A DNA stretch of 64,000 nucleotides. It comes from Vallitaleaceae bacterium 9-2. Its GTDB lineage: Bacteria; Bacillota; Clostridia; Lachnospirales; Vallitaleaceae. The notes beneath the pieces were generated by a model. The model saw only the letters and a list, made by a program, of their open reading frames with translations. It searched no databases and was not told the DNA's origin. The position numbers and the translations under genes were made by a program. Positions 7,369-54,162 of the stretch are shown piece after piece. Where the stretch lies: contig CP121691.1 in assembly GCA_038396585.1 (NCBI GenBank), positions 2,046,001 through 2,110,000 of the forward strand, in the 5' to 3' direction. Numbering within the stretch: position 1 is the stretch's first letter; every line of letters starts with the position of its first letter.

Positions 7369-7385
7369 AGAAAGGAAGACAAATA

Positions 7386-8021: not shown

Positions 8022-8029
8022 CGCCTAGC
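8009..8029. terminator. Compact hairpin spanning both convergent stop codons
   Basis: GCTAGGC (8009-8015) pairs with GCCTAGC (8023-8029) around a 7-base loop. The LUD stop (8019-8021) is in the loop and the stop of the opposing gene (8025-8027) is in the stem. There is only a weak T run afterwards, so it may be an inefficient bidirectional terminator. Confidence 0.45.
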
Positions 8030-9407
8030 CATGCCTTTTGACTTCAAATCTAAACAAAGCATAGTGACCTTCGTTAATTCCAGCTTTTTGCTTTGCAATA
8101 TGAATCTGTTCTTTAACTGAATCAATACCTTCAAGGTTAGGAAGCAACAATCCACGTTTACGCCCTTGTTCAACAATAACACCATATCGACTTACATCAA
8201 GTTTATTCACATCGTCAATGGCTTCGATCGGCATAAGGACATCTACCTTAATCTCCAAGTCAGCTAACTCACTCTTAACGACAGGATTAAACCTTGGATC
8301 TGATGCACACGCACTAATTCCATTATAAATAATCTCTTCAATAACATTATCTTGCGTCGGCTGAATCGTTCCAATACATCCCCTTAATTGACCATATTTA
8401 TGAATCGAGACAAATACACCTGCTTTGTTTTTACTTTCTTTTGATATAAACTCTGCCGGAAAAGCTTCAGGTTCAAACGTATATTTTCTACCGGTTTGAA
8501 CATAGTGTTCTATACTTTTTTTTGCCAGTTTAACATAAGCATCGGCTCTTTTATCGTCTTGAGCACTCCCTCCTGATTCTAAATACCCTGTTAAATAACC
8601 AACGCCAAAGGGTCCTTCATAACTTATTATTTTTGATATATCTATAACCTTTGACATAATTCCAAATCCGATAAGATAAGGTCTTAACCCGCACTGAGCT
8701 GCATTTTCGATAAAATCCGAGCTTAACTCCAACAAAGGATTGACATTTTTTTCAATGATTGCCTTTTGCACAAGGTGATCAAATACTTGACCATCCGGGT
8801 GATATGCATAAGGACCACTATCTTTTAATGCATGGGATAAATCGCCACTAATTACAATAAGTATTTCTTGATTGGTCTCTCGCATGTAATCATCAATGAC
8901 GTTTCCAATGCACTGACCAATGTGATAATTATCCGTTAACGGCGTAAATCCAGGTGTTAAATGTACAATGTTATATGCATCATACTCTTGATCAATAAAA
9001 TACATAGGTACTAAAACCCCATGATCTAAACCTGTTCGTATATTATAGGTTTGAGCTAATTCTTTTGTCATCAATACTGTGTTAATGTGCTCTTGTTGTA
9101 ACACTTCAACAATTTTTTTGGTAAGCGACTGTTCCACAGTTTTTTGGAACGTCATGTGTTCATGACCAAATTGATAAAAAGATCCTTCAAAGACATCACC
9201 ATCAAGGATGCATGTAGCATCTGAAAACGCATTGCCATGGGGTGAAACAAAGATAATGGTATCGGGTTGAATCTCTCGAATCTTCTTTGCTAATTTTTCC
9301 ATTCCCTGAATCGTTTCCTTTGCGCCTCGCGCTTCATCTCCTCCGATTTCTTTAATGATAATCGGTGGATGCGGCATAAAAACAACGGTTTTTTTCAACA
9401 AATTCAC
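8025..9407 (-). CDS. Memo/LigB-like domain fused to AMMECR1 domain
   Basis: This 460-residue protein is the fused form of two parts of the AmmeMemoRadiSam system. Residues 1 to about 275 resemble class III extradiol dioxygenases (LigB/Memo fold), with likely metal-binding histidines in MPHPP (His13), VSPHG (His57) and VISGDLSHAL. Residues from about 290 on are an AMMECR1 domain with its hallmark LRGCIG and the ASDPRFNPV segment. The start overlaps the end of the radical SAM gene by 4 bases. The three families co-occur widely in bacteria and archaea, but I know of no established reaction for the set, so no substrate is assigned. Fusion and operon order are seen directly. Confidence 0.88.
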   Translation of the reverse strand: MNLLKKTVVFMPHPPIIIKEIGGDEARGAKETIQGMEKLAKKIREIQPDTIIFVSPHGNAFSDATCILDGDVFEGSFYQFGHEHMTFQKTVEQSLTKKIVEVLQQEHINTVLMTKELAQTYNIRTGLDHGVLVPMYFIDQEYDAYNIVHLTPGFTPLTDNYHIGQCIGNVIDDYMRETNQEILIVISGDLSHALKDSGPYAYHPDGQVFDHLVQKAIIEKNVNPLLELSSDFIENAAQCGLRPYLIGFGIMSKVIDISKIISYEGPFGVGYLTGYLESGGSAQDDKRADAYVKLAKKSIEHYVQTGRKYTFEPEAFPAEFISKESKNKAGVFVSIHKYGQLRGCIGTIQPTQDNVIEEIIYNGISACASDPRFNPVVKSELADLEIKVDVLMPIEAIDDVNKLDVSRYGVIVEQGRKRGLLLPNLEGIDSVKEQIHIAKQKAGINEGHYALFRFEVKRHG

Positions 9408-10258
9408 CTCACATTTCCTAAGCTTACATAACTAAAATATTTTTTTGCCACTTCTTTTATTTTTAGCATTAATGCAATGTCTGTTGCCGGTTCATTATAA
9501 TGATATCTTGGGAAATATCGACTTACATGTAATTCAATATCCCCCACACGTTGATGGATTTGCTCAAAAAGTTTATCAAGCTGTTCAATATCATCGTTAA
9601 GCTTTGGAACGATAAGACAGGTAAGTTCAACATGAATCCCATATCCCTTTGCCAATTCAATCGTTTTTAATACAGGCGCCAAGCGTCCAGCACAAATACG
9701 TTGATATTGCTTATCATCATATGTTTTGATATCAATATTCATTGCATCAAGCAGTGGAGCCAATTGAATAAACGGCTCAGGGTTAATAAATCCATTGGTC
9801 ACCATAACATTACGGATTCCATGTTCTTTCGCACATTTGGCTGTTTCTATCATCCATTCGTAAAAGACTGTCGGTTCATTATATGTATAGGCAATACTTT
9901 TAAGGTCGTGGTCCATTGCACTATTAACAATATCTTCAGGTTTTATATATTGCTTTGGTATATTAAATTCTCTAGATATGTCGCAATTTTGACAAAACTC
10001 GCACTCCATGTTGCACCCATAGCTTCCTACAGAGAGAATCTCGCTCCCAGGAAAAAAATGATGCAACGGCTTCTTTTCAATAGGATCAATGGCAATTGCA
10101 CTTAGCTTTCCATAATTTAAACTATAAAGCTTTCCTTCAATATTTTTTCTAACTAAGCATCGCCCTGTATGCCCTTGTTTAAGTACACAATAATGTGGAC
10201 ACAATTGACACTGTAATTGTTGATTCTTCATTGTCGTATAATACATTGCTTCTCGCAT
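9404..10258 (-). CDS. AmmeMemoRadiSam system radical SAM enzyme
   Basis: This 284-residue radical SAM protein has the Fe-S motif CxxxCxxC at Cys82, Cys86 and Cys89 (GCNMECEFCQNC). An N-terminal cysteine cluster (Cys17, 20, 24, 34; CQLCPHYC...GRC) resembles that of pyruvate formate-lyase-activating-type members of this subfamily. AYTYNEPTVFYEW and the MNIDIKTYDD segment are typical of the AmmeMemoRadiSam enzyme. The ATG at 10258 follows AAGGAG. No pyruvate formate-lyase-type partner is nearby. The overlapping Memo-AMMECR1 fusion is the obvious partner, which is why I prefer this assignment to a PFL activase. Confidence 0.9.
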   Translation of the reverse strand: MREAMYYTTMKNQQLQCQLCPHYCVLKQGHTGRCLVRKNIEGKLYSLNYGKLSAIAIDPIEKKPLHHFFPGSEILSVGSYGCNMECEFCQNCDISREFNIPKQYIKPEDIVNSAMDHDLKSIAYTYNEPTVFYEWMIETAKCAKEHGIRNVMVTNGFINPEPFIQLAPLLDAMNIDIKTYDDKQYQRICAGRLAPVLKTIELAKGYGIHVELTCLIVPKLNDDIEQLDKLFEQIHQRVGDIELHVSRYFPRYHYNEPATDIALMLKIKEVAKKYFSYVSLGNVR

Positions 10259-10370
10259 TTTTGCTCCTTACTTTTTTCTTCGCAAACAAATTGTCCTAAC
10301 GCTCAAACCCTATTCTAACTTTATTATAGCACTCTGTGTTAGCACTGTCATAATTTTAATAGTTTTTTAA

Positions 10371-10399
10371 TTGAAGCCTCGGCTTTTTTAGCGTACAAT
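10371..10399 (+). promoter_or_regulatory. Promoter of the Bax inhibitor-1 family gene
   Basis: TTGAAG (10371-10376) and TACAAT (10394-10399) are separated by 17 bases, about 30 bases before the start codon. Confidence 0.65.
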
Positions 10400-10429
10400 G
10401 TAACATAACTACTTTAGGAGGGATACTTT

Positions 10430-11116
10430 ATGAACGATAATACATTAACAATACAAGGACTAAATGCTTTTTTATCCAAAGTTTTTATGTGGATGTTTTT
10501 TGGTCTGATGCTAACCGCACTGACCTCTTTAACTGTTGCTTCTTCACCTTTACTTCTTAGTTTGATTTTTTCAAACAGACTCATCTTTTTTGGGCTACTC
10601 ATTGGTGAATTTGCTCTAGTTATTGTTTTATCAAAAAACGCATTAAAATATAGTTATGGAAAAACCGTCGGATTATTTTTATTTTACTCATTCCTTAATG
10701 GTTTAACCCTATCTTCCATATTGCTTCTATATACTGGACAAAGTATTGCAACCGCATTTATGATTGCAAGTGTCGTATTTGGAGTAATGGCTCTATATGG
10801 TTATGTCACCAAAACAGATTTGACACCATTTCGCTCATTTTTAATGGTTGGTGTTATTGGAATTATTGTGCTGACTGTAATTAATATCTTTTTAGGTAAT
10901 GGAACATTATTTTATTTGATTAATTTAGCCGGTGTTGTCATCTTTGCCGGTCTAACTGCATATGATTTACAAAAAATGAAGTCCTTATATGCATACAGCG
11001 TCAACAACACTCAAGTTGCTTCTGGTAATATTGCTGTAACCGGTGCACTGACACTATATTTAGATTTCATCAACTTGTTCTTATTTATCTTACGCCTGTC
11101 CGGCAAGCAAAGATAG
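10430..11116 (+). CDS. Bax inhibitor-1/YccA family membrane protein
   Basis: This 228-residue protein has seven or so hydrophobic helices and the BI-1/YccA pattern: an N-terminal NAFLSKVFMWMFFGLMLTA helix, a central FYSFLNGLTLSSILL helix, and the AGLTAYDLQKMK segment before the last helix. Bacterial members such as YetJ of Bacillus behave as pH-sensitive Ca2+ leak channels, so a role in calcium balance is plausible but not shown here. The ATG at 10430 follows GGAGGGA and the gene has its own promoter and terminator. Confidence 0.85.
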   Translation: MNDNTLTIQGLNAFLSKVFMWMFFGLMLTALTSLTVASSPLLLSLIFSNRLIFFGLLIGEFALVIVLSKNALKYSYGKTVGLFLFYSFLNGLTLSSILLLYTGQSIATAFMIASVVFGVMALYGYVTKTDLTPFRSFLMVGVIGIIVLTVINIFLGNGTLFYLINLAGVVIFAGLTAYDLQKMKSLYAYSVNNTQVASGNIAVTGALTLYLDFINLFLFILRLSGKQR

Positions 11117-11160
11117 CTTATTATTAAGCTTCTTTATATATATATTTCATTATACCCCTT

Positions 11161-11200
11161 TTAAAGCCATATAACTTGTTATATGGCTTTAAATTATTTT
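11161..11200 (+). terminator. Terminator after the Bax inhibitor-1 gene
   Basis: AAAGCCATATAAC (11163-11175) pairs with GTTATATGGCTTT (11178-11190), followed by AAATTATTTT. It separates the membrane protein gene from the carboxypeptidase gene. Confidence 0.6.
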
Positions 11201-11257
11201 CGTATATTGTTTTCGTCGAAAAAAACCTTTATACTATTAATAAAGGGGGATGTATCT

Positions 11258-12547
11258 ATGAACATATCAAAAAAATTATCGTTTATTTTTATCTTTATTT
11301 TTCCATTCGTTTTTTCGTTCTCAACGGGTGTCTGCGCCCAAGCTGAGCTTGTCCAACTATCGAACGGAGAATCCATGTCGTCTCAGGACCTTTTTTCACT
11401 GGCTGTTGCACTAGAAAAAAAATATCCCACTCTTATATATGTTGATATTATCGGCTATTCTGTCGATCAAAAGCCTCTCTATTCCATCATCATGACCGCA
11501 GATGTTGATACACTTCGTCGCCAAAAAGATTTTAACATATTACGTCAACACTACTTTGTCGAAGCCGGAACCCATGCCCGCGAAACTGTAAATCCTCTCA
11601 TTGTCATGAAGCAAATTGAAGACTACGCTATTGATTACCATCAGGAAAACCATATTCAAGAATTTTCCCTTTCGCAAATGCTTGAAGAGGTCGCTATCCA
11701 TTTTTTACCATTAACAAATCCTGATGGTTTTGACCTGGTAAAGTTTGGTGAAGCATCAGTTCAGACCCAACATGGACGCAAACTATTATTATCGGTTGGC
11801 GATGACCACTACACCAACTTCAAATCCGGTATCTCTGGAGTGGACCATAATAGAAACTATCCCCAACACTACTTTGACATGGATGAAAATATCTGGAAAA
11901 ACATTTGGCAATTAAATATAAGCAATTTACATGCAACGTCGCCATCTGCAGAATTTTATCCCGGACCGCACCCCGCATCCGAACCCGAAGTCAAAACTGT
12001 TATGAACTATATCTTGCGTTATGATTTTCGCAACTATATAAGTTTTCACTCAAGAGGCAATGTTCTCTATTGGAATAAATACTTTGCCCCCGATTACTAC
12101 AATCAGCGAAGTAAAACATTAGCTCAAACCATTCAAATCGCAAATGGCTATGAACTCATGGATGAAGATAACGGATTAGGCAGCGGCTATTTGAGTGATT
12201 TTACGTCAAGCGAAACACTAAAGCCACTGATTACTGTCGAAACACTCCCTATCTCTACCGATTTACCAACACAAGCGCATCTCTACCCAACTGCCTATGA
12301 AGCTAATCGTCTTGTCCCATTGTATGCCATTAGCGAAGGACAAAAAACAGGGTACTTCCCCTATCGATTATATGTGGATGATGTCTATGTCCGTGACTTT
12401 GAAAATCTAACTTACGCTAACGCCATCGCGCAAAAATATAATGGTAAAATTGTTGAAGGCGATGCTACACCTTCCATGTTTTTAAATAAAAAGAAAAGAA
12501 CTCATAGTATCTATGAGTTCTTGATAAAACACTTACCATTAATATGA
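11258..12547 (+). CDS. Secreted M14-family zinc carboxypeptidase
   Basis: I start this at the ATG at 11258, preceded by AAAGGGGGA, which gives a 429-residue protein with a clear signal peptide (MNISKKLSFIFIFIFPFVF, predicted cleavage after CAQA). Zinc ligands of the M14 family are visible: HARE (His106, Glu109) and a later SFHSRG histidine. NPDGFD, DHNRNYP and the catalytic glutamate in PLITVETLP also fit. The enzyme should trim peptides or wall-derived peptides outside the cell. Its last 17 or so codons form the terminator hairpin of the convergent rnpB gene, so the C-terminal tail is probably dictated by RNA structure and not by catalysis. Confidence 0.85.
   Translation: MNISKKLSFIFIFIFPFVFSFSTGVCAQAELVQLSNGESMSSQDLFSLAVALEKKYPTLIYVDIIGYSVDQKPLYSIIMTADVDTLRRQKDFNILRQHYFVEAGTHARETVNPLIVMKQIEDYAIDYHQENHIQEFSLSQMLEEVAIHFLPLTNPDGFDLVKFGEASVQTQHGRKLLLSVGDDHYTNFKSGISGVDHNRNYPQHYFDMDENIWKNIWQLNISNLHATSPSAEFYPGPHPASEPEVKTVMNYILRYDFRNYISFHSRGNVLYWNKYFAPDYYNQRSKTLAQTIQIANGYELMDEDNGLGSGYLSDFTSSETLKPLITVETLPISTDLPTQAHLYPTAYEANRLVPLYAISEGQKTGYFPYRLYVDDVYVRDFENLTYANAIAQKYNGKIVEGDATPSMFLNKKKRTHSIYEFLIKHLPLI
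12484..12522 (-). terminator. Terminator of rnpB, inside the carboxypeptidase coding end
   Basis: Read on the minus strand, AAGAACTCATAG and its complement (12496-12507 and 12511-12522) form a 12-bp stem with a 3-base loop, followed by a T-rich run (12484-12496). On the plus strand no T run follows, so it serves rnpB. Confidence 0.75.
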
Positions 12548-12872
12548 CCAAGCCGATAAGCCGAGTTCTGTCGTGAACGATCATCTATCTAGCCCTATTG
12601 TCACCAATAGGATCAAGCGACCAACCAAGAACACAGCGGGCAGCTGTTAACTTTCGTTTGTTCTTTACGGTCTTGCTCCAAGTGGGGTTTACATTTGCCC
12701 TGTTTGTTACCAAACAAGCGGTGAGCTCTTACCTCGCCTTTCCACCCTTACCTTACGGCGGTTTATTTCTGTTGCACTATCCTTAGAGTCGCCTCCACCA
12801 GACGTTATCTGGCACCCTGCCCTATGGAGCTCGGACTTTCCTCACCTTGCGGCGCGATCGTCTAGCTTAGTC
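12546..12872 (-). ncRNA. rnpB: RNase P RNA
   Basis: The minus strand carries the conserved RNase P RNA core: GAGGAAAGTCCGAGCTCC near the 5' end, AAAGGCGAGGTAAGAGCTCACC in the middle (seen at about 12725-12760), and GACAGAACTCGGCTTATCGG near the 3' end. The P1 helix closes the molecule: GACTAAGC (12865-12872) pairs with GCTTGGTC (12546-12553) over eight base pairs including one G-U, which sets the ends given here. The length of about 327 is somewhat shorter than many bacterial homologues. It processes the 5' ends of precursor tRNAs. A promoter lies upstream and a terminator downstream. Confidence 0.95.
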
Positions 12873-12888
12873 ATAATGTAGTTTTTTA

Positions 12889-13818
12889 TTAATTGGTGAG
12901 CCGCTTATAAAAAGACGGCTCGTTTATTATATATACAATTGCTAATATAATCAAGTACAAAATAAATGGAAATGGAATTAAATAGGATAACGACTCTTGG
13001 AAAAAAAGTCCGTCACGCATCATAAATACAAGAATACTATTTGCAAGTACTATCATACATACACCAATGATTTTACTTCGCCTCTTATAATTAAGCCAAC
13101 GCCACTGTCGAAGAAACAGCACTATGGATAACACTACCGTAACCGCAAACAATGCCATCCATCCATTTTGTATTGCAACACAATAAAGATGTATTAAAAG
13201 CACCACTTCATACGTAAAATTCCAATATCGACTTTGTCCCAATGTCGTATAATTCAAACTATTTTGAACTAAGATTAGAAATACATATATAAAAGCAAAA
13301 ACAGGTAATCCCTTGGAAAGCCCTATGGAATTCCACAAAATATTAATCATTAGCCAATTCAGTGCAAACCCGATGTATTGATTCATCGCTTTTTTTGACT
13401 GATTGACTTTTTTATGTAAATTCAATGAGATCAAATTGTGCGTATTATTTTCCTGATAAAGAATGTATACCACCATAAGAAGAACGATGAGGAGTGTTTG
13501 CCAATCATCCGTCTTCTCATAAAGCCCCATTCCCCATAAAACGTTGACTCCAATATATAAAAAAGTGAATCCAAATGTAACACCCAGCGCCACTTGATGC
13601 ATAAACTGTAGGCGGTTTTTCATCCGTTGCCTTGTTACTGCAAATCGATAAAAAATCCACCAAATAGTGGTTTGGTGACTCACAAGAGCCACTGCTCCAA
13701 AAATAAACAAGAGCAAACCCATATCCTTTAATGCCAGCACATGCAACAATAGATAGATGATTAAACTTGACACTGAAATAACAATTCCCAATAGAGAAAG
13801 TTTATTTTTTAATAGCAT
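12889..13818 (-). CDS. Polytopic membrane protein of unknown function
   Basis: This 309-residue protein has about nine to ten hydrophobic helices joined by short basic loops. The first (LLGIVISVSSLIIYLLLHVL) starts near residue 8 and the last (FPFILYLIILAIVYII) ends near residue 298. I recognise no family motif. It starts 21 bases after lepB, with GAAGAGAG upstream of the ATG at 13818, and closes the queA-lepB operon. The rnpB promoter lies in its last codons. It could be an uncharacterised sensor or transporter; nothing visible decides this. Confidence 0.8.
   Translation of the reverse strand: MLLKNKLSLLGIVISVSSLIIYLLLHVLALKDMGLLLFIFGAVALVSHQTTIWWIFYRFAVTRQRMKNRLQFMHQVALGVTFGFTFLYIGVNVLWGMGLYEKTDDWQTLLIVLLMVVYILYQENNTHNLISLNLHKKVNQSKKAMNQYIGFALNWLMINILWNSIGLSKGLPVFAFIYVFLILVQNSLNYTTLGQSRYWNFTYEVVLLIHLYCVAIQNGWMALFAVTVVLSIVLFLRQWRWLNYKRRSKIIGVCMIVLANSILVFMMRDGLFFQESLSYLIPFPFILYLIILAIVYIINEPSFYKRLTN
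12926..12954 (-). promoter_or_regulatory. rnpB promoter
   Basis: On the minus strand TTGATT (12949-12954) and TATAAT (12926-12931) are 17 bases apart. The site lies within the last codons of the upstream membrane protein gene. Transcription should start near 12919, giving a leader of about 47 bases with a GAGCC/GGCTC hairpin before the mature RNA. Confidence 0.7.
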
Positions 13819-13839
13819 ATTCTCTCTTCTTTCTGTGCT

Positions 13840-14445
13840 TTATTTTAATAGTCCCATTTTGTTGAGCGGCCAGAAGCGAAACATTACACGTCCTTCAATC
13901 TTTTCGATAGGAACACTTCCAAAATCTCGACTGTCTAAGCTTACTGTTCTATTATCCCCTAATACAAAATAATGATCTTCTTCAACCAGCAAAGGATAAT
14001 CCAAACTTTTTGCATTTGTAGGTACAGATAAATATTCCTCTTCCAGACGTTGTCCATTCACAAATACATAGCCATCTTCTATATTGATTTCGTCGCCTGG
14101 CAGCCCGATAACCCGTTTAACTAAGCGTAAATGTCCGTCTTTTTGGCGAATTTTTGACAGCATATCTTCATATAATCGTTTAATTCTTGCTGGAATTGTA
14201 TTTTTGACTTCAAGCTCGTCAATAAACACAATAATATCCCCACGCTTTGGCTCGCCAAAACTATACGACAAACGCTCAACAACGAGTTGATCATTTTCCA
14301 TGAGTGTCGTCTCCATGGATGATTGTCTAACTTCCGATAAACTAAACACAAACACATTAAGAAAGTTTGTAATTAGCAATGCAATAATGATAATTTTTAC
14401 ATATTCCAATACTTCTGCCATTATTTTTTTCATTTTATACCTCAT
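13840..14445 (-). CDS. lepB: Signal peptidase I
   Basis: This 201-residue type I signal peptidase removes signal peptides from exported proteins at the outer face of the membrane. It has one N-terminal membrane anchor (about residues 15-35), the nucleophile Ser43 in SSMETTLM and the general base Lys110 in [13 protein letters not shown]. The GDNR...[11 protein letters not shown] box follows at about 165-185. The usual Pro of the SMxPTL motif is Thr. The start overlaps queA by 4 bases. A second in-frame ATG four codons later (14433) has a nearer AGG ribosome site and could be the real start. Confidence 0.93.
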
Positions 14446-15467
14446 TTTATAATCATCGCATCTCCAAAGCTGAAGAAACGATATTTTTCATGTATAGCTT
14501 CTTGATATGCCTTTAAGACATAGTCTTTTCCGGCAAGTGCAGAGACCAACATGATTAGTGTTGATTCCGGCAAGTGAAAATTGGTGATGAGACCGTCGAT
14601 GATTTTAAATGTATACCCCGGATATATAAAAATATCCGTCCACATTGATCTTGCTTCTATCCGTCCATGTTCATCGCTTAAGGACTCCAAAGTTCGAAGA
14701 CTTGTTGTCCCCACCGCAAATACTTTCTTTCCATTTTCCTTAGTCGAATTAATCACTTGAGCGTCTTCTTCTTTAATATAGCAATATTCAGAGTGCATTT
14801 CATGGTCTAGGATATTATCCACTTTGACCGGACGAAATGTTCCCAAACCAACATGCAGTGTCACATACGCAATATGCACACCTTTTTGTTTAATTGCATC
14901 CAAATATTCATTAGTAAAATGCAAGCCTGCCGTAGGTGCTGCTGCCGAACCGGTATGCTTTGAAAAAACTGTTTGATAGCGCTCTTGATCATCGAGCTCT
15001 TTTTTTATGTAGGGTGGCAAGGGCATCGTTCCCAATCGATCTAGAACTTCCTCAAAGATGCCTTCGAACTCAAATTTGACAATACGGTTACCGCCAGGAG
15101 CCACCTCTTGGACAACCGCCTTTAGCATACCACCACCAAAAGTTATCCGTGCACCAACCTTTGCCTTTTTTCCTGGTTTTACGAGCACTTCCCATTCATT
15201 ATTATTTTTTCTATTTAATAATAAAAACTCGACTTTACCTCCCGTATCTGCCTTTTCTCCAATAAGCCTTGCCGGAAGTACACGCGTATTGTTAAGAACC
15301 AAACAATCGCCTTCATTTAAATAATCTATTAAATCCCGAAACTTCTTATGTTCAATTGTCTTTTTTTCTTGGTCAAGAACCATCAGTCTAGATGCCGTTC
15401 GCTCCTTCAAAGGCTCTTGAGCAATCAAGTGCTCCGGCAAGTCAAAATAAAATTCGTTTACGTTCAT
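14442..15467 (-). CDS. queA: S-adenosylmethionine:tRNA ribosyltransferase-isomerase
   Basis: This 341-residue enzyme transfers and isomerises the ribosyl part of SAM onto preQ1 at tRNA position 34, making epoxyqueuosine. The sequence matches QueA from end to end: [14 protein letters not shown] at the start, [13 protein letters not shown], the PTAGLHFT motif and the [14 protein letters not shown] and [16 protein letters not shown] motifs. The ATG at 15467 follows AAAGGAG. No other queuosine gene is adjacent. Its linkage here is with lepB, which it overlaps. Confidence 0.95.
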
Positions 15468-15491
15468 ATGTTACTCCTTTCAGCAAACTTT

Positions 15492-15520
15492 ATTGTACCA
15501 CTTTTCAGAAAAAGTTTCTA
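15492..15520 (-). promoter_or_regulatory. Candidate queA promoter
   Basis: On the minus strand TAGAAA (15515-15520) and TACAAT (15492-15497) are 17 bases apart, about 25 bases before the start. The spacer holds an inverted repeat (CTTTT...GAAAAG) resembling one upstream of gltB. Confidence 0.45.
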
Positions 15521-15631
15521 CACTGAAAGTATAAAATACTATACAATTCAATTATTTTCATGTAAACTATAGTATATAAATTAATATTCGTTCTCTATTA
15601 ACCGGTTTTAAGAAAATAAGGAGTGATTAAT

Positions 15632-16879
15632 ATGTATACTCTTTCTCATCTGATTTCTAATAACAAACTGGATCTTGGCGCCCTATACGAAATCATGAAA
15701 TCTGCCCACTACAGTTTTGGGATTTCAATAAGCTTGTTCAATCAACAAAAAAAGCAATTGAAGACTTATGGCACAGGGCACGAGCTGTTCGCCCAATATT
15801 CAGATATATATACTGAATATATGACCTATATGGATCAAAACCTTCCCCTTTCAACCACTCCTATTTTATTTAAATCAAGTTATGGCGTACATTACTTAAG
15901 CTTTCCTCTAATACATAACAATAATTTTTATGGTTTCATTGCACTGGGTCCATTTTTAGAATCTACATTGTCCGAACATCAGCTTAATCAAATCATACAA
16001 TCTAAGGACTTAGCCCTAAGCGAGCGCCATCGTTTCAAAGGCATTTTTTCCAAAATTCCAACCCTCTCAAAAACCCATCTATTTCATATAGAAAAGACAT
16101 TCATTACACTTCTTGAATCTAACCACTCCCCAAAGACCTCAACAGTAAAACCCGACAGCGAAAACACTGACCAAGCACGTATGACACCTATGCTTGATAC
16201 ACATTCCAAAGATACTTTGTCAAACTTTTTGAATTTTGACTTTGAATTATTGTTTTTGGACAAAGTAGGCAACGGCGACGTCGAACAGGTTTTTGCATTG
16301 TATTATGAACACCTTCGCCCTGCTTTTTCTGATTATTCAACAACAGGATTTATAGATAACCAGTTTAACGCGATCATCCTTAACACATTACTTTCCAGAA
16401 AGGTAATTCAGTCAAGTGTGGACGCCGATTATGCCATTGAGTTATCTCACCAGTTTATTGAGGCTATTAAATCATCTAAAACCTCCCAAGAATTAATGAC
16501 GGTGGTAGAAGATATGATTAGCAAGTATACAAACAGCGTCTTACATATTGATTCAATTAATCATGTGGGCGTCATAAAAAAAGCTTCAAAATATGTGCAT
16601 AATCATCTTTCAGAGGCTATTCGTTTACAAGAAGTTGCTGACTATATCGGTTTATCGCCAAATTACTTTTCTTCTTTATTTAAAAAAGAAATGAACCTTG
16701 CCTTTGCCGATTATGTAAATCATATACGTATTAAAGAAAGCCAATACTTATTAAAAACAACCGATCAATCTATTTTAGATATTGCTTTAGCTGTTGGATT
16801 TAATAATCAAAACTATTTTACAACCATCTTTAAAAAAGTTACAGGAATTACACCAAAGCAATATCGTATCAAAACATAA
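15632..16879 (+). CDS. AraC-family transcriptional regulator
   Basis: I start this at the ATG at 15632, eight bases after AAGGAG, giving 415 residues; a GTG nine bases earlier is less likely. The C-terminal 100 residues are an AraC-type double helix-turn-helix: LQEVADYIGLSPNYFSSLFK for the first and SILDIALAVGFNNQNYFTTIFKK for the second, ending in TGITPKQYR. The N-terminal half (about residues 1-160) has a sensor-like mix of strands and helices that I cannot assign. A middle helical part (about 195-310) resembles those found between sensor and DNA-binding domains. No target operon is evident: it diverges from queA-lepB and converges on pheT. Confidence 0.9.
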   Translation: MYTLSHLISNNKLDLGALYEIMKSAHYSFGISISLFNQQKKQLKTYGTGHELFAQYSDIYTEYMTYMDQNLPLSTTPILFKSSYGVHYLSFPLIHNNNFYGFIALGPFLESTLSEHQLNQIIQSKDLALSERHRFKGIFSKIPTLSKTHLFHIEKTFITLLESNHSPKTSTVKPDSENTDQARMTPMLDTHSKDTLSNFLNFDFELLFLDKVGNGDVEQVFALYYEHLRPAFSDYSTTGFIDNQFNAIILNTLLSRKVIQSSVDADYAIELSHQFIEAIKSSKTSQELMTVVEDMISKYTNSVLHIDSINHVGVIKKASKYVHNHLSEAIRLQEVADYIGLSPNYFSSLFKKEMNLAFADYVNHIRIKESQYLLKTTDQSILDIALAVGFNNQNYFTTIFKKVTGITPKQYRIKT

Positions 16880-28007: not shown

Positions 28008-29168
28008 TTATGCCTCCAACGTCTTTGCAACATCAGACAATTTATCTGGAATTGCAATATTTTGCGGACATTTTGAAATACACGTACCACAGGCAACACA
28101 TGCAGATGCCTTTTGTTCATCGTCTAAATGTTGATATTGCTCTTTTTGATTGTCTTTTATAGCTTTGGAATCAAAGAGATTATATTCATTGTATAGACCA
28201 AAGTTTCTGGGTATATTTACACCATATGGGCATGGCATACAGTATTCACATCCTGTACAATCCACTTGAATTCGGTCTCTAAAGATTTTTTTCGCTCGAT
28301 TCATGATGGATTTTTCCTGTTCTGTAAATGCATTAGGATAGCTAGTACTTGCTATGTCCATATTCTCCTTGACTTGGTCTAACGTAGACATCCCACTAAG
28401 CACCACATGCGTTTCAGGTTGTTCCCAAATCCACTTTAACGCCCATTTCGCAGGCGTCTTCTTCTCCTTGGCTTCATCAAAAACCTCTTGAACCGCCTCT
28501 GGAATGCTACGTACTAGATTACCTCCACGAAGTGGTTCCATAATAACAATACCCAAGTTTTTTTCCACAGCATAGTCTAAGCCTTCTTTACCTGCCTGAT
28601 ACTCTTCATCAATATAATTATATTGAATCTGGCAAAAAGACCAATCATAGTCATCCACAATTTGTTTAAACGTCTCGAGCTTATCATGAAAAGAAAAGCC
28701 AGCGTAACGAATGCGTCCATCTTTTAACGCACTTTCCAAAAAGTCTATAATGCCCAGTTCAAGCATTTTTTTCCATCTAGCCTCGTCTAATGCATGCACC
28801 AAATAAAAATCGATGTAGCGGGTCTCTAAACGTTCCAGCTGGCGATTAAGATACATATCCATGTCTTGACGGGTCTCAACAAGCCAACTCGGAAGTTTGG
28901 TTGCCAGATTCACTTTTTCACGATATCCATTTTTTAAAGCTTTAGCCACTAAAGGTTCGCTCATTCCGCCTTCTTTGCCTCCAAGACCATGATAGGGATA
29001 AGCAGTATCTACATAGTTTAATCCTCGGTCAATAGCAAAATGCATCATTTCAATTGCTTTTTCTTCATCAATTTTTGTTGTGTCTTGATCAATTATCGGA
29101 AAACGCATACAACCAAAACCTAGAACCGAAACCTTTTCTCCCGTTTTACCAAACTGTCTGTATAACAT
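28008..29168 (-). CDS. Aldo/keto reductase with C-terminal ferredoxin domain
   Basis: This 386-residue protein has an aldo/keto reductase barrel in the first 280 residues: FGKTGEKVSVLGFGCMRFP at the start, YVDTAYPYHG with the catalytic tyrosine, and the LGIVIMEPLRGG segment. The C-terminal part carries two 4Fe-4S motifs: CTGCEYCMPCPYG and CVACGTCISKCPQN. This ferredoxin-tailed form is common in anaerobes, and its substrate is generally unknown. The Fe-S tail suggests electron exchange with ferredoxin in place of, or besides, NADPH. It is a single gene with AGGAGGT before its start. Confidence 0.9.
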   Translation of the reverse strand: MLYRQFGKTGEKVSVLGFGCMRFPIIDQDTTKIDEEKAIEMMHFAIDRGLNYVDTAYPYHGLGGKEGGMSEPLVAKALKNGYREKVNLATKLPSWLVETRQDMDMYLNRQLERLETRYIDFYLVHALDEARWKKMLELGIIDFLESALKDGRIRYAGFSFHDKLETFKQIVDDYDWSFCQIQYNYIDEEYQAGKEGLDYAVEKNLGIVIMEPLRGGNLVRSIPEAVQEVFDEAKEKKTPAKWALKWIWEQPETHVVLSGMSTLDQVKENMDIASTSYPNAFTEQEKSIMNRAKKIFRDRIQVDCTGCEYCMPCPYGVNIPRNFGLYNEYNLFDSKAIKDNQKEQYQHLDDEQKASACVACGTCISKCPQNIAIPDKLSDVAKTLEA

Positions 29169-29259: not shown

Positions 29260-29288
29260 TAGTCAAATTGTTAAATTTTTGCTAAAAT
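29260..29288 (+). promoter_or_regulatory. Candidate promoter of the IscU-like/GGGtGRT operon
   Basis: TAGTCA (29260-29265) and TAAAAT (29283-29288) are 17 bases apart. The leader of about 110 bases contains a hairpin, CACCGAT/ATCGGTG at 29339-29357, that may stabilise the message. Confidence 0.45.
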
Positions 29289-29403
29289 AGAGCAGTATGC
29301 GTTATGAAGTCTATTTATAAAGGTTATAGCGGTTTTTTCACCGATGAATTATCGGTGTTGAATAAAATATAAGCGTTCATTAGAAGGAAGGAGAACCATC
29401 AAA

Positions 29404-30096
29404 ATGATTTATTCACATGAAGTAGAAAATATGTGTCCAGTTGCAAAAGGTCCAAAAAATGGCCCAGCACCAATTCCTGTTGAGGGAAAATGGGTTAAAG
29501 CCTATGATGTTAAAGACATTTCAGGTTTAACACATGGTGTTGGTTGGTGTGCACCTCAACAGGGAGCATGTAAGTTAACATTAAATGTTAAAGACGGTAT
29601 TATTGAAGAGGCACTCATCGAAACCATCGGATGTTCAGGAATGACCCACTCTGCTGCTATGGCTAGTGAGATTTTACCAGGAAAGACAATTCTTGAAGCT
29701 TTAAATACAGACCTTGTGTGTGATGCAATTAACGTTGCAATGCGTGAACTTTTCTTACAAATCGTATATGGTCGTACACAAACGGCTTTCTCTGAAGGCG
29801 GACTCCCTATCGGAGCTGGTCTTGAAGACTTAGGAAAAGGTCTTCGTTCACAAGTTGGTACAATGTATGGTACACAAGCAAAAGGCCCTCGCTATCTTGA
29901 AATGGCTGAAGGTTATGTTACAAAAATGGGACTAGATGAAAACGATGAAGTTATCGGTTACAAATTTGTTCATCTTGGAAAAATGATGGAATTTATAGCT
30001 AAAGGCAAAACCGCTAATGAAGCTATGGAAGAAGCTACAAGTCAATACGGTCGATTCGATGATGCTGTTAAATACATCGATCCAAGACACGAATAA
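29404..30096 (+). CDS. IscU/NifU-N-like scaffold family protein
   Basis: This 230-residue protein resembles IscU/NifU scaffolds in its first 110 residues. GACKLTLNVKDGIIEEA parallels the IscU first-cysteine strand region (Cys49 and Cys56), and ETIGCSGMTHSAAMASEIL with LPGKTILEA parallels the second-cysteine region (Cys77). The third IscU cysteine motif is not present. The C-terminal half is a distinct extension (GLPIGAGLEDLGKGLRSQ...). The next gene encodes a GGGtGRT-family protein 20 bases away. Codon choice is strongly biased (GGT, GCT, CGT), as in highly expressed genes. It may be an Fe-S scaffold or sensor for its partner; the function is unknown. Confidence 0.8.
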   Translation: MIYSHEVENMCPVAKGPKNGPAPIPVEGKWVKAYDVKDISGLTHGVGWCAPQQGACKLTLNVKDGIIEEALIETIGCSGMTHSAAMASEILPGKTILEALNTDLVCDAINVAMRELFLQIVYGRTQTAFSEGGLPIGAGLEDLGKGLRSQVGTMYGTQAKGPRYLEMAEGYVTKMGLDENDEVIGYKFVHLGKMMEFIAKGKTANEAMEEATSQYGRFDDAVKYIDPRHE

Positions 30097-30116
30097 TATT
30101 AAGGAGGACAAGAAGA

Positions 30117-31112
30117 ATGCCATTATTTGAAAGTTACGCTAGAAGAATAGATCAAATAACGCCAGTATTAGAAAAATATGATATCGAAAGCCTTGAGGCT
30201 GCTAAACAACTTTGTTTAGATAAAGGAATTGACGTACATCAAATCGTTAAAGAGATTCAACCTATCTGTTTTGAAAACGCATTATGGGCTTATACACTTG
30301 GTGCAGCTATCGCGATTAAAAAAGGATTAACTGTTGCTGCTGAAGCTGCTGAAGCTCTTGGTGAAGGTCTTCAAGCTTTCTGTATTCCTGGTTCCGTTGC
30401 CGATCAACGTCTTGTTGGTATTGGTCATGGTAATCTTGCTGCTATGTTACTTCGTGAAGAGACAACATGCTTTGCTTTCCTTGCTGGTCATGAGTCCTTT
30501 GCTGCTGCTGAAGGTGCAATTGGTATTGCAAAATCTGCAAACAAAGTACGTAAACAACCACTTCAAGTTATCCTAAACGGTCTTGGAAAAGATGCAGCAC
30601 AAATCATTTCACGTATTAATGGTTTTACACATGTTGAAACTGCATTTGATTATTATACAGGTGAATTAAAAGTTGTTAACGAAAAAGCATACTCAACAGG
30701 CGACCGTGGTGCCGTTCGTTGTTATGGTGCTGATGATGTTCGTGAAGGTGTTGCGATTATGCACCACGAAAATGTTGGTGTATCCATCACTGGTAACTCC
30801 ACAAACCCTACGCGTTTCCAACACCCTGTTGCCGGAACATATAAAAAAGAATGTATCGAGCAAGGTAAAAAATACTTCTCCGTTGCATCTGGTGGTGGTA
30901 CAGGCCGTACACTTCACCCTGATAACATGGGTGCTGGTCCTGCATCATACGGAATGACAGACACAATGGGTCGTATGCACTCTGACGCTCAATTTGCCGG
31001 GTCTTCTTCTGTACCTGCTCACGTTGAGATGATGGGACTTATCGGAATGGGTAACAACCCAATGGTTGGTGCATCTGTTGCTGTTGCTGTTGCTATCGAG
31101 CAAAATGCATAA
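30117..31112 (+). CDS. GGGtGRT family protein
   Basis: This 331-residue protein carries the signature that names the family, GGGTGRTLHPDNMGAGPASYG, with GGGTGRT at about 259-265. Cysteines at about 33, 51, 89, 118, 202 and 246 are spread along the sequence. The first half is Ala rich and helical, with GIGHGNLAAMLLREETTCFAF. The family is known from anaerobes and no reaction is established. Like its upstream IscU-like partner it shows codon bias typical of abundant proteins. GGAGG precedes the ATG at 30117. The fixed pairing suggests that the two proteins act together. Confidence 0.88.
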   Translation: MPLFESYARRIDQITPVLEKYDIESLEAAKQLCLDKGIDVHQIVKEIQPICFENALWAYTLGAAIAIKKGLTVAAEAAEALGEGLQAFCIPGSVADQRLVGIGHGNLAAMLLREETTCFAFLAGHESFAAAEGAIGIAKSANKVRKQPLQVILNGLGKDAAQIISRINGFTHVETAFDYYTGELKVVNEKAYSTGDRGAVRCYGADDVREGVAIMHHENVGVSITGNSTNPTRFQHPVAGTYKKECIEQGKKYFSVASGGGTGRTLHPDNMGAGPASYGMTDTMGRMHSDAQFAGSSSVPAHVEMMGLIGMGNNPMVGASVAVAVAIEQNA

Positions 31113-31145: not shown

Positions 31146-31185
31146 AAGGGTCATGCTTGGAAATATCCAAGCATGGCCCTTCTTT
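31146..31185 (+). terminator. Terminator after the GGGtGRT gene
   Basis: AAGGGTCATGCTTGGA (31146-31161) pairs with TCCAAGCATGGCCCTT (31166-31181), with one G-U, and is followed by CTTT. It separates the operon from the convergent phosphatase gene. Confidence 0.85.
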
Positions 31186-47002: not shown

Positions 47003-49486
47003 ATGTCAAAAAAAGTTCTTATTGTCGGCGGCGTTGCTGGCGGTGCTTCCACAGCAGCTCGATTACGAAGACTCGATGAAAATGTTGAAATCATCCTTTT
47101 TGAGCGAAGCCCTTATATTTCCTTCGCCAATTGCGGCCTTCCCTATTACATCGGTGGCACAATTAAGGAACGGGAATCTCTTCTTGTTCAAACTCCTGAA
47201 GCAATGAAAGCCAGGTTTAATATTGATATACGTGTTGAAAATGAAGTTATTGATATCAACCCCACCCAAAAAACCGTAACGGTTCTTGATATTAAGACGT
47301 CAACCAAATACGAAGAATCCTATGATGAACTTGTTCTCTCACCAGGCTCTACACCTATAAAGCCCCCTATTCCAGGGATTGAGAGCAGCAATATTTTTTC
47401 GCTGTGGAATATTCCAGATACTGACCGCATTAAACATTTTGTTACGGAACATAATGTAAAAACAGCGACAGTTGTCGGCGGCGGCTTTATTGGCATCGAA
47501 ATGGTTGAAAACCTTCACGAGCTTGGCATAGAAGTCAATCTTGTCGAAATGCTTGACCAAGTTATGGCTCCTCTTGACTATGAGATGGCTCAAATTGTTC
47601 ATAGCCATTTATCTACTCAAGGCGTACATCTGTATCTTAAAAATGGTGTCAAAGAATTCAAGTATGAACAAGGTGTCACACATGTTAAGCTTCAAGATGG
47701 AACAAGTCTCGCTTCGGATATGGTCATTTTAAGTATTGGTATTTCCCCCAACGGTGAATTAGCCAAATCTGCCGGTTTGACTACGAATGCTCGTGGCGGT
47801 ATTGTCGTTGATGAATACTTACGAACTTCCGATCCCAATATTTATGCTTTAGGTGATGTAATTGAAGTTGTTGACTACATGACCAAAGATAAAACAATGG
47901 TCCCTTTGGCAGGTCCTGCGAATAAGCAAGGGCGTATTGTTGCCAACAATATATGCAAACGACAAAGCACATATGAAGGTAGTCAAGGCACCAGCGTCGC
48001 CAAAATATTTGACCTTACCGTAGCTAATACCGGTCTTAATGAAAAAGCACTGAATAAGATGGGTAAAGTTTATGGCAAAGATTACTTTGTTACTATTATT
48101 CAACCAAAATCCCATGCAGGTTATTATCCTGGCGCGTTTCCGATGACACTCAAAGTGATTTTTGACACTTCCGGCAAAGTACTTGGTGCACAAAACATTG
48201 GTGTTGAAGGTATAGAAAAACGCATCGATGTCATTGCAACTTCGCTACGCTTTGATGGGACAATATATGACCTTCAGCGACTGGAGCTTGCCTATGCTCC
48301 TCCCTATTCTTCTGCAAAAGATCCTGTCAATATGGCTGGTTTTGCTGCTGAAAACATCCTAAAAAAAGATCAAGAGGTTGTCTTATGGCGTGATATCGAT
48401 ACTTTTGATAAAGAGACCACTCTTATCGTTGATGTACGTGAAGACATTGAAGTCGAGCTTGGAAAAATTGACGGTGCAGTGCATATCCCAGTTAATGATC
48501 TTCGAGATCGTATTGACGAACTACCAAAAGACAAAACTATTGTTATCTATTGTGCGGTTGGAATTCGTGGCTATATTGCTACAAGAATCTTAAAGCAACA
48601 TGGATTAGATGCTAAAAATTTAATCGGAGGATATAACCTGTACAAGTACTTCCAAAAAGATTATACCCATCCAAATTGCATTATCGAAGACAAAAAACAT
48701 GTTTTGTCTGAAGATGGAACGCCAGAAACCGCGATTAACTTTGTCCCCTCAAGTAACTTAGCCTCAGCCATTGTACTTGATGCATGTGGCCTTCAATGTC
48801 CTGGCCCTATTATGAAGGTGAATCAAAAAGTCAAAGAGGTCAATGATGGGGATATTATCAAAGTATCGGCAACGGATTCCGGATTCCCTGTTGATGCTCA
48901 GGCTTGGTGCAAAAAAACGGGAAACAGTTTTATTAAAACCGTCAAAGAAGACAAGACCTATGTTGTCTATATCCAAAAAGGCTCTTCACAAATTCAAGCC
49001 AAAGAGACTAAAGCACTAAACGCAAGTACCATGGTTGTCTTTAGCGGCGATTTGGATAAAGCTATTGCATCCATGATTATTGCAAATGGTGCAGCCGCAA
49101 TGGGAAAAGACGTGACATTATTTTTTACCTTCTGGGGACTAAATATTTTACGGAAACCCGAAAAACAAAAAGTATCTAAAGGGCTTATTGAAAAAATGTT
49201 CGGTATGATGATGCCTCGTGGTGTACATAAACTTAAGCTATCTAAAATGAACATGGGTGGTTTAGGCACCAAGATGATGCATGGGGTCATGAAAGCCAAA
49301 AATGTAAATACTGTCGAAGATTTGATTCAATCCGCAATGGATGCAGGTGTTAAGTTCGTGGCATGTACAATGTCTATGGATATTATGGGAATTACCAAAG
49401 AAGAACTTCTTGATGGCGTTGAGTATGGCGGTGTTGCTGCATACCTTGGAGCCGCAGAAGATTCCAATCACAACCTGTTCATCTAA
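47003..49486 (+). CDS. CoA-disulfide reductase-like/rhodanese/TusA/DsrE fusion protein
   Basis: This 827-residue protein joins four sulfur-handling modules. Residues 1 to about 450 are an FAD/NAD(P)H disulfide reductase of the CoADR type, with the redox Cys44 in FANCGLPYYIGG. About 460-555 is a rhodanese domain with its cysteine near 517 in IVIYCAVGIRG. About 585-660 is a TusA domain with LDACGLQCPGP near 595. From about 675 to the end is a DsrE-like domain with a cysteine in FVACTMSMDIMG. The order suggests that persulfide sulfur is passed between modules and reduced by NAD(P)H. GAGGT precedes the ATG. Confidence 0.92.
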   Translation: MSKKVLIVGGVAGGASTAARLRRLDENVEIILFERSPYISFANCGLPYYIGGTIKERESLLVQTPEAMKARFNIDIRVENEVIDINPTQKTVTVLDIKTSTKYEESYDELVLSPGSTPIKPPIPGIESSNIFSLWNIPDTDRIKHFVTEHNVKTATVVGGGFIGIEMVENLHELGIEVNLVEMLDQVMAPLDYEMAQIVHSHLSTQGVHLYLKNGVKEFKYEQGVTHVKLQDGTSLASDMVILSIGISPNGELAKSAGLTTNARGGIVVDEYLRTSDPNIYALGDVIEVVDYMTKDKTMVPLAGPANKQGRIVANNICKRQSTYEGSQGTSVAKIFDLTVANTGLNEKALNKMGKVYGKDYFVTIIQPKSHAGYYPGAFPMTLKVIFDTSGKVLGAQNIGVEGIEKRIDVIATSLRFDGTIYDLQRLELAYAPPYSSAKDPVNMAGFAAENILKKDQEVVLWRDIDTFDKETTLIVDVREDIEVELGKIDGAVHIPVNDLRDRIDELPKDKTIVIYCAVGIRGYIATRILKQHGLDAKNLIGGYNLYKYFQKDYTHPNCIIEDKKHVLSEDGTPETAINFVPSSNLASAIVLDACGLQCPGPIMKVNQKVKEVNDGDIIKVSATDSGFPVDAQAWCKKTGNSFIKTVKEDKTYVVYIQKGSSQIQAKETKALNASTMVVFSGDLDKAIASMIIANGAAAMGKDVTLFFTFWGLNILRKPEKQKVSKGLIEKMFGMMMPRGVHKLKLSKMNMGGLGTKMMHGVMKAKNVNTVEDLIQSAMDAGVKFVACTMSMDIMGITKEELLDGVEYGGVAAYLGAAEDSNHNLFI

Positions 49487-50778: not shown

Positions 50779-51381
50779 ATGTCATTAAAAGTCCTTATGT
50801 ATCTTATTGTCACAACACAGCTAGCGACATTTATAGGCTATGATTTTGTTGACAGCATGATTGTTAAACATGAATTTATCCAAGAACCTATTCAAGAAAA
50901 TATCCCTTATGAATATATGATTTCCATCAACGGAAAAGATGGCAGCGTCGATTTAGAACTCCTTGCTGCATATGAGATTGTTGCACAAGTCAAAAGTATC
51001 AAGGATTACTCTGATGATTTTACCTCTCAAATTTCTCCAAGAGATTTTGCGTTGGCATGGGGAGATGTGAACATGCCTTCTATAGATAACTATGTCCATT
51101 ATCGTCAAAACGAGCGCTGGTACTATTTTACCGTTAGCTCCAAAGCTCCGGTTAGTGCAGAATATGTCGACTACTATAGCGCCAACACACATATTATTCC
51201 TGCAAATCCGACAATACTTGAAACCGTAAGATCAGTTCAAACAAATGATCGTATCACGATGAAAGGATATCTTGTAAATGCCTATTTTAAAAACGGGTAT
51301 TGGCAATCAAGCCTAACCCGTTCAGATACAGGTGACGGTTCATGTGAAATCATGTATGTCACCGATATAGTCATTCATTAA
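50779..51381 (+). CDS. Putative exported or anchored protein, unknown function
   Basis: I start this at the ATG at 50779, which sits at a perfect AGGAGGTG site, giving 200 residues; the open frame begins 78 bases earlier. The N-terminus is a short hydrophobic helix (SLKVLMYLIVTTQLATFIGY), a signal or anchor. The remainder is soluble, with several Tyr- and Asp-rich stretches (VEYVDYYSANTH-like region near 142). I do not recognise a family. Its stop overlaps that of sufU by 3 of 4 bases (TTAA), with no evident terminator between. Confidence 0.72.
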   Translation: MSLKVLMYLIVTTQLATFIGYDFVDSMIVKHEFIQEPIQENIPYEYMISINGKDGSVDLELLAAYEIVAQVKSIKDYSDDFTSQISPRDFALAWGDVNMPSIDNYVHYRQNERWYYFTVSSKAPVSAEYVDYYSANTHIIPANPTILETVRSVQTNDRITMKGYLVNAYFKNGYWQSSLTRSDTGDGSCEIMYVTDIVIH

Positions 51382-54148: not shown

Positions 54149-54162
54149 AGTATCCCTCCTTT

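What the first reader, a model, noticed from the sequence alone, without database searches (positions are those of the whole stretch)
29404..31112. Highly biased IscU-like/GGGtGRT gene pair of unknown function
An IscU-like protein without the third scaffold cysteine, and with a long new C-terminus, is paired with a GGGtGRT-family protein. Both use codons of abundant proteins, and the promoter leads into a hairpin leader. The full suf system elsewhere in the window handles general cluster assembly, so this pair likely has a different task, such as a special cluster or sulfur or redox chemistry.
Basis: partly seen in the sequence, partly recalled or inferred. Interest (0 to 1): 0.65.

Follow-up and report, generated by a model that had tools for sequence, protein, structure and literature searches.

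The report
Iron-linked abundant protein pair

Summary
The pair is real: a 230-aa IscU-like protein (29404-30096 +) and a 331-aa GGGtGRT protein (30117-31112 +, PF14057). It is an obligate two-gene module: 78 of 80 loci and 65 of 66 GGGtGRT-positive genomes of its class sample (read off by eye) have both genes together in this order, with no fixed neighbours. Codon usage is at ribosomal-protein/EF-Tu level (5th and 12th of 315 ORFs); the suf operon in the window is average. The 'missing third cysteine' is wrong: C49, C77, C106 and H44 are invariant in 116 of 116 sequences. The hairpin leader is not supported. GGGtGRT has no invariant Cys, many invariant His/Asp/Glu and no recognised fold. Published tables: the pair falls 11-12.8-fold in low iron in Bacteroides thetaiotaomicron; GGGtGRT has the highest early iron-excess ratio (7.1) in a Clostridium pasteurianum gel table. 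Best reading: an obligate iron complex, the IscU-like subunit holding Fe or Fe-S and GGGtGRT being its metal-dependent client; an anaerobic iron-sulfur store is the main rival. Function undetermined. By-product: in some Clostridia the 3' end of the GGGtGRT gene is an insertion site of integrase elements carrying defence genes.

The parts
29404..30096 (+). IscU/NifU_N-fold protein, 230 aa; residues 25-124 IscU core, invariant H44, C49, C77, C106; residues about 125-230 a family-specific C-terminal part
   Evidence: ORF; NifU_N 21.6 bits; hhalign to IscU 96.3%; model VIA Z 9.0; invariants 116 of 116
30117..31112 (+). GGGtGRT protein (PF14057), 331 aa; helical N-terminal part, Rossmann-like alpha/beta part, and a highly conserved stretch (about 226-310) modelled with lower confidence, 260-299 under pLDDT 50
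   Evidence: PF14057 E 5e-196; model mean pLDDT 80.2; 140 of 331 positions at least 98.5% conserved in 120 sequences
31146..31181 (+). intrinsic terminator ending the two-gene unit (a terminator-like site is also scored on the other strand)
   Evidence: 16-pair stem, T-rich tail; fold z -6.4
29260..29288 (+). possible promoter (-10 TAAAAT preceded by TG, poor -35); weak
   Evidence: number of promoter-like sites in the region not above chance
29339..29357 (+). perfect 7-bp palindrome in the leader; probably chance, an operator at most
   Evidence: only exact match in the window, but 0.13 such palindromes expected per 115 nt and not found in four same-order relatives

Best explanation
The two genes make one obligate, abundant, iron-controlled complex. 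SHOWN: strict linkage and order, high-expression codon usage, IscU fold with an invariant 3-Cys + His set, a partner with no invariant Cys but many invariant His/Asp/Glu residues, and lower expression in low iron in one Bacteroides and one Clostridium species (published tables). INFERRED: that the two proteins bind each other; that the IscU-like protein is not a catalytic scaffold for the cell at large but a near-stoichiometric subunit that holds Fe or an Fe-S unit on C49/C77/C106/H44 and hands it to, or keeps it on, GGGtGRT, its sole client; and that GGGtGRT is a metal-dependent enzyme whose conserved stretch (226-310) becomes ordered only with metal, cofactor or partner. In iron plenty the cell makes much of it; in shortage it is dropped (iron sparing).
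For: Linkage: IscU-like directly upstream in 78 of 80 loci, the other two being cut by the contig start; phylum sample: the same 8 of 149 genomes have both; class sample: 66 of 148 with GGGtGRT, all 66 with a strong IscU-like match, 65 on the same contig and strand, one split over two contigs. No recurrent neighbour in the 80 loci except ABC ATPases (15 loci, varied positions), enolase (5) and a response regulator (4); free-standing also in Vibrio and Persicobacter. Codon usage between EF-Tu and ribosomal proteins for both genes, suf genes average. Invariant residues. Iron: BT0173-74 down 11-12.8-fold, P listed as 0; C. pasteurianum GGGtGRT 7.1-fold (early) and 2.2-fold (late) higher in iron excess, and two spots of the NifU-related protein with the neighbouring locus tag 2.4- and 3.7-fold (early). 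Human stool: GGGtGRT and NifU-type proteins with adjacent locus tags detected together; chicken gut: GGGtGRT 'highly expressed in vivo'.
Against: No activity, metal content or interaction is known. The pair is patchy (8 of 149, 66 of 148 genomes) and present in very different metabolic guilds, which a single abundant catabolic enzyme would not readily explain. Abundance is inferred from codon usage and relatives, not measured here. In the chicken study NifU protein was reported for Bacteroidetes, Megamonas and Succinatimonas but not for Blautia and Megasphaera, which expressed GGGtGRT. The GGGtGRT model matches no solved fold (Foldseek best E 0.037; VIA best Z 7.5, within the range the tool calls common), so 'enzyme' rests on conservation alone; the low-confidence stretch may also reflect a shallow alignment. 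IscU's Asp39 and LPPVK motif are missing, so the site may not work as in IscU.
Confidence: 0.4

Rival explanations
1. Anaerobic iron-sulfur store or buffer. The IscU-like subunit loads Fe/S and GGGtGRT oligomerises around it or stabilises it; the complex fills in iron plenty and is emptied or not made in shortage, as ferritin does for oxidised iron.
For: Iron-replete expression in two phyla; EF-Tu-level codon usage; a free-standing two-gene module in organisms as different as Clostridia, Desulfoarculaceae, Akkermansia, Spirochaetes and Vibrio, as expected of homeostasis rather than of one pathway; phyla partly mixed in the tree. True ferritins (matches over 100 bits) are somewhat rarer in pair-positive genomes, 21 of 66 against 38 of 82.
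Against: The ferritin difference is not significant (Fisher P 0.09, kinship not corrected for), and the window's own genome has both the pair and ferritin. 140 of 331 nearly invariant positions in GGGtGRT are more than a storage matrix should need (inference). No resemblance to IssA was tested.
Confidence: 0.32
2. A dedicated scaffold and helper for one class of abundant anaerobic Fe-S enzymes, such as hydrogenase or pyruvate:ferredoxin oxidoreductase: a specialised assembly system.
For: IscU fold with 3 Cys + His; in C. pasteurianum it rises in iron excess together with hydrogenase, PFOR and aconitase; in Collinsella aerofaciens the pair lies about 2 kb downstream of a suf operon, beyond a transposase gene.
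Against: [FeFe] hydrogenase (PF02906) is found in 139 of 148 genomes; lacking it are 2 of 66 pair-positive (G314, G355) and 7 of 82 pair-negative genomes, so no tie. Assembly factors are not normally encoded at EF-Tu level (general knowledge). No recurrent linkage to an Fe-S enzyme or cysteine desulfurase in 80 loci.
Confidence: 0.17
3. Sulfur, zinc or redox chemistry without iron: the three cysteines bind zinc or carry persulfide (as in SufU), and iron regulation is indirect.
For: The IscU-fold SufU is called a zinc-dependent sulfurtransferase in PDB entries; the Asp of the IscU site falls in a gap.
Against: SufU model score 17.4 against a cut-off of 92.5; the window has its own SufU beside SufS; iron is the only regulator of the pair that I found.
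Confidence: 0.1

Closest known systems
IscU / NifU N-terminal domain (PF01592) scaffold proteins
   Same: Fold of residues 25-124, the core around C77 = E. coli Cys63, three cysteines at topologically matching places
   Different: First cysteine 3-4 residues earlier (the IscU Cys37 column holds Gln53), Asp39 and LPPVK missing, about 105-residue extra C-terminal part, as a rule no linked cysteine desulfurase, obligate GGGtGRT partner, very high codon bias, lower in low iron
GGGtGRT family PF14057
   Same: Full-length match, E 5e-196
   Different: Nothing; the papers that I opened give the family no function (one calls it 'poorly characterised'; one lists it among software-predicted virulence hits)
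SufU (TIGR01994)
   Same: IscU fold
   Different: 17.4 bits against cut-off 92.5; a true SufU lies elsewhere in the window
IssA thioferrate storage protein (PMC5524996; seen only as a search listing with the start of the abstract)
   Same: At most the idea of an anaerobic iron-sulfur store
   Different: No sequence or structure comparison made

Membership tests
GGGtGRT PF14057 | full-length profile match over the curated cut-off | tested here: met
   650.6 bits against 27, residues 4-329
IscU/NifU_N | IscU fold | tested here: met
   VIA Z 9.0, rmsd 2.2, 87 residues to 8rmc_D, IscU entries fill the top ranks; hhalign 96.3%. The model's pTM is 0.56
IscU/NifU_N | curated family cut-offs | tested here: not met
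   NifU_N 21.6 against 22; NifU_clost 27.9 against 187.9, iscU 22.8 against 192.4
IscU/NifU_N | three conserved cysteines | tested here: met
   C49, C77, C106 in 116 of 116; the first displaced by 3-4 residues, the third placed by helix order, not by superposed coordinates
IscU/NifU_N | aspartate next to the first cysteine (E. coli Asp39) | tested here: not met
   gap in the query in the profile alignment
IscU/NifU_N | LPPxK motif before the third cysteine | tested here: not met
   the stretch before C106 reads N101-T102-D103-L104-V105, no LPPxK (motif in canonical IscU)
IscU/NifU_N | cysteine desulfurase partner encoded nearby | tested here: not met
   none recurrent (4 or more loci) among 80 loci with up to 6 kb flanks, many cut by contig ends; one exception seen, a suf operon near the pair in Collinsella
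IscU/NifU_N | assembles or transfers Fe-S clusters | not testable with these tools
   needs biochemistry
SufU | equivalog score | tested here: not met
   17.4 against 92.5
Known solved fold for GGGtGRT | structural match | tested here: inconclusive
   Foldseek best E 0.037; VIA best Z 7.5, mainly region 111-318 tested; PDB sequence profile search best E 0.18

The most novel reading that the evidence does not exclude
A previously unrecognised iron-sulfur store or buffer of anaerobes: an IscU-derived loading subunit and a GGGtGRT matrix/enzyme subunit, made at EF-Tu level in iron plenty, spread as a two-gene cassette through about ten phyla, doing for ferrous iron and sulfide what ferritin does for oxidised iron.
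Probability: 0.28. Interest if true: 0.88.

Novelty: new variant of a known kind. Interest (0 to 1): 0.58.

Why it matters
A protein seen repeatedly in gut and rumen metaproteomes and conserved about as strongly as EF-Tu has no known function. The evidence here turns it into a sharp, testable question: it comes with one IscU-like partner that keeps a 3-Cys + His set, and the pair is lowered in low iron in two phyla. Either outcome matters: a new way in which anaerobes hold iron and sulfur, or a new abundant iron enzyme of the microbiome.

Tried and rejected
Lost third cysteine: rejected. Hairpin leader or riboswitch: not supported for the window; Rfam at gathering scores gives five matches in 11 further loci, tRNAs, a T-box and a ZMP/ZTP riboswitch, all on the minus strand and none at the leader of the pair; leaders are alike only within small groups. 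[FeFe] hydrogenase maturation: not supported. Ferritin complementarity: direction as expected for a store, not significant. C-terminal part of the IscU-like protein as a second, degenerate IscU half: alignment in the expected register, but hhalign probability only 2.8%, P 0.016, and no match to its own N-terminal half; left open. Ni,Fe-CODH among the weak Foldseek hits of GGGtGRT (E 0.04, TM 0.23): treated as noise. Bacteroidota sample: only the centre genome positive, 1 of 148, so no co-occurrence test there. EF-Tu comparison: in 8 of 15 genomes of the similarity-chosen loci a full EF-Tu was found, 64-79% identical where GGGtGRT is 77-84% (equal, 79 and 79, in Butyrivibrio); in the five genomes of the even phylum sample with both full, GGGtGRT is 66-76% and EF-Tu 74-78%. 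So 'more conserved than EF-Tu' is not claimed. C. difficile iron paper: rows seen without column heads, not used. Paper searches without use for the function: (its hits are other identifiers).

Rows dropped: alignment A4 leaves out L020 and L041 (contig start) and L059, L079 (gene split in two frames), so 76 of 80 loci plus window; A8 uses 27 of those 76 plus window, A7 the same plus four of L002-L008. The whole-length MAFFT alignment to IscU was distorted by length and not used. The 65 of 66 count of adjacency was read off the tables by eye; set membership was checked.

Full report
What is there. Two ORFs at the stated coordinates, 230 and 331 aa, 20 bp apart, each after a good ribosome-binding site by eye, followed by a strong terminator. 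Protein 2 is a full-length PF14057 GGGtGRT protein; protein 1 hits NifU_N just under the cut-off and reaches the cut-off of none of the curated IscU/NifU/SufU models. The window lies in an unnamed 3.81-Mb single-contig genome with one GGGtGRT gene.

An obligate pair. By their titles they come from ten phyla: Bacillota 51, Verrucomicrobiota 7, Bacteroidota 6, Spirochaetota 4, Myxococcota 4, Thermodesulfobacteriota 3, Methanobacteriota 2, and one each of Lentisphaerota, Pseudomonadota and Fibrobacterota; many are bins, which may hold foreign contigs. In 78 of 80 the IscU-like gene lies directly upstream on the same strand (in L059 and L079 it is split in two frames); in the other two the contig begins 120 and 54 bp upstream. 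In an even sample of the phylum, 8 of 149 genomes, own included, have GGGtGRT, and the same 8 have a strong match to the IscU-like profile (380-467 bits), all other matches being under 30 bits. In the class sample, 66 of 148 have GGGtGRT and 67 have a strong IscU-like match (318-480 bits, the rest under 33): the same 66 and G317, whose match runs to the end of its contig. In 65 of the 66 both matches are on one contig and strand in this order; in G433 two partial matches lie on two contigs. In G373 and G450 the gap is about 0.4 and 0.8 kb; in Parabacteroides a 64-aa ORF lies between. No gene family is fixed around the pair; those in four or more of the 80 loci are ABC ATPases (15), enolase (5) and a response regulator (4). 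Collinsella has a suf operon about 2 kb upstream. Vibrio and Persicobacter, not strict anaerobes as far as I recall, also carry a free-standing pair.

Expression level. With 21 ribosomal-protein and elongation-factor genes of the same genome as reference, GGGtGRT has CAI 0.749 (5th of 315 ORFs of at least 150 aa; lowest effective codon number of all) and the IscU-like gene 0.716 (12th); EF-Tu is 0.777, the median 0.51, the suf genes 0.48-0.53. The 315 ORFs come from the window and 19 stretches of 20 kb, picked as longest non-overlapping ORFs. Relatives are seen in metaproteomes (passages of the papers only): rumen, where GGGtGRT and NifU proteins are named, but from different species; chicken caecum, where GGGtGRT is 'highly expressed in vivo' in several genera, NifU in only some of them; human stool, GGGtGRT and a NifU-type protein with adjacent locus tags DFSSTS7063_01431/01432, and a GGGtGRT and a NifU-type protein both lower in colorectal cancer, not known to be from one organism.

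The IscU-like protein. Profile comparison with five canonical IscU proteins gives 96.3% and E 1.8e-9 over window residues 33-102. The predicted structure (pLDDT 77.7, pTM 0.56) matches IscU entries best, Z 9.0 over 87 residues. C77 equals E. coli Cys63. The column of Cys37 holds Gln53, the invariant C49 lies 3-4 residues earlier, and Asp39 falls in a gap. C106 directly precedes helix 107-122, as the third IscU cysteine precedes its last helix (recalled); the VIA range 25-124 on chain residues 55-157 would, without gaps, put ISCU2 Cys138 (numbering recalled) within a residue of C106. C49, C77, C106 and H44 are invariant in 116 of 116 sequences; C11 (90) and C56 (113) are not. The C-terminal part has no natural PDB sequence relative of note; a faint echo of the IscU core in it is not significant.

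The GGGtGRT protein. Mean pLDDT 80.2; a helical N-terminal part, a Rossmann-like part, and residues 260-299 under 50 although they are among the most conserved. No convincing fold match and no second Pfam family shared by its members beyond weak matches (17 of 81 to NeqB_N, best E 0.04). In 120 sequences 140 of 331 positions are at least 98.5% conserved, among them H104, H125, H236, H267, H288, H302, E126, E132, D159, D269, D282, D290 (120 of 120 each); no cysteine is invariant (at most 118 of 120). This suggests metal or cofactor chemistry; that is inference.

Iron. In B. thetaiotaomicron BT0173-74 (GGGtGRT, NifU) fall 11-12.8-fold in low iron, P listed as 0 (PMC10434189: abstract, section 8 and passages). 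The paper names GGGtGRT once, for this species; I did not look for homologues in its tables for P. gingivalis and P. intermedia. In C. pasteurianum the GGGtGRT protein is 7.1-fold (early) and 2.2-fold (late) higher in iron excess, the highest early iron-excess ratio in the table, and two spots of the NifU-related protein with the neighbouring locus tag rise 2.4- and 3.7-fold (PMC5395762, section 11 read). RNA in one phylum, protein gels in another, same direction.

Evolution. In a quick tree of 81 GGGtGRT proteins (31 of 77 inner branches open) phyla are clustered but not clean: 16 changes against a least of 9 and a shuffled mean of 28. Identity to the window protein is 76-84% from Clostridia to Victivallis and Akkermansia where EF-Tu is 64-79% in the 8 of 15 genomes in which a full one was found. 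These loci were picked for similarity; in five genomes of the even phylum sample GGGtGRT is 66-76% and EF-Tu 74-78%. The fair statement is a rate like that of EF-Tu or a little faster, with probable transfer between phyla.

Mechanism. A scaffold encoded as strongly as ribosomal proteins, with one fixed partner and as a rule no desulfurase next to it, is more likely a subunit than a catalyst of assembly. I therefore read the pair as one complex: the IscU-like subunit holds Fe or Fe-S; GGGtGRT is the client enzyme or the matrix. Enzyme (0.40) and store (0.32) cannot be told apart with the data; ferritin distribution leans weakly to the store (21 of 66 against 38 of 82, P 0.09). A hydrogenase-specific role is unlikely: 2 of 66 pair-positive and 7 of 82 pair-negative genomes lack PF02906.

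By-product: an insertion site. In five genomes (G327, G328, G421, G435, and Clostridium zeae G154) a second copy of about the last 75-98 bp of the GGGtGRT gene lies 1.8-15 kb downstream in direct orientation, 91-97% identical. In G327 and G328 a tyrosine recombinase (PF00589, E 8e-28 and 5e-30) starts right after the intact gene, and the stretch between the copies carries a type III restriction-modification system and a bSEFIR gene respectively. In the other three no relative of these two recombinases was found between the copies. Related recombinases sit at the same place in G379 (L136) and L082, where the far end is not in the fetched stretch. The 3' end of this conserved gene thus looks like an attachment site of integrative elements with defence cargo. 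No second copy was found in the window's genome.

Known or new. Both families are named in databases. Of 17 papers holding the word GGGtGRT I opened 9, by passages or sections, and none assigns a function; the other 8 look by title like primer sequences. Further searches; open-licence PMC papers only. I rate it a new variant of a known kind: an IscU-fold protein bound to an orphan partner.

Noticed in passing
L150 (G327) 2096-11274; L151 (G328) 1203-16233; L149, L148, L147; L136; L082: The 3' end of the GGGtGRT gene looks like an integration site: about the last 75-98 bp duplicated 1.8-15 kb downstream in five genomes, a tyrosine recombinase (PF00589) directly after the gene in two of them and in L136 and L082, cargo such as type III restriction-modification and bSEFIR defence genes; two further copies in a row in L147.
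   Followed up: partly
window 51378-56333 -: Complete suf operon SufC-B-D-S-U, each over an NCBIfam cut-off, with average codon usage.
   Followed up: yes
window 47003-49486 +: 827-aa fusion of a CoA-disulfide-reductase-like flavoprotein with a C-terminal DsrE2-like sulfur carrier part (and, by eye, rhodanese and TusA-like parts), near the suf operon (CoA-disulfide reductase and DsrE2 scores are below the curated cut-offs).
   Followed up: no
window 28008-29168 -: Divergently transcribed aldo/keto reductase with a C-terminal 4Fe-4S part; a COG1453 aldo/keto reductase is also higher in iron excess in C. pasteurianum, link not tested.
   Followed up: no
L043, L051, L055, L062, L068, L075 upstream of the IscU-like gene: Six related loci share a palindrome of the form AGGTGA-N-TCACCT (imperfect in some, e.g. 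L051) just after the -10 region, a possible operator.
   Followed up: no
L176 5800-5991: Parabacteroides distasonis has a 64-aa ORF annotated between the NifU-like and GGGtGRT genes.
   Followed up: no
L175 1-6993: In Collinsella aerofaciens the pair lies about 2 kb downstream of sufB-D-S-U, with a transposase between.
   Followed up: no
G350 (contigs C4 and C66): One genome of the class sample carries two complete copies of the pair; its listed contamination is 6%, so this may be two organisms.
   Followed up: no
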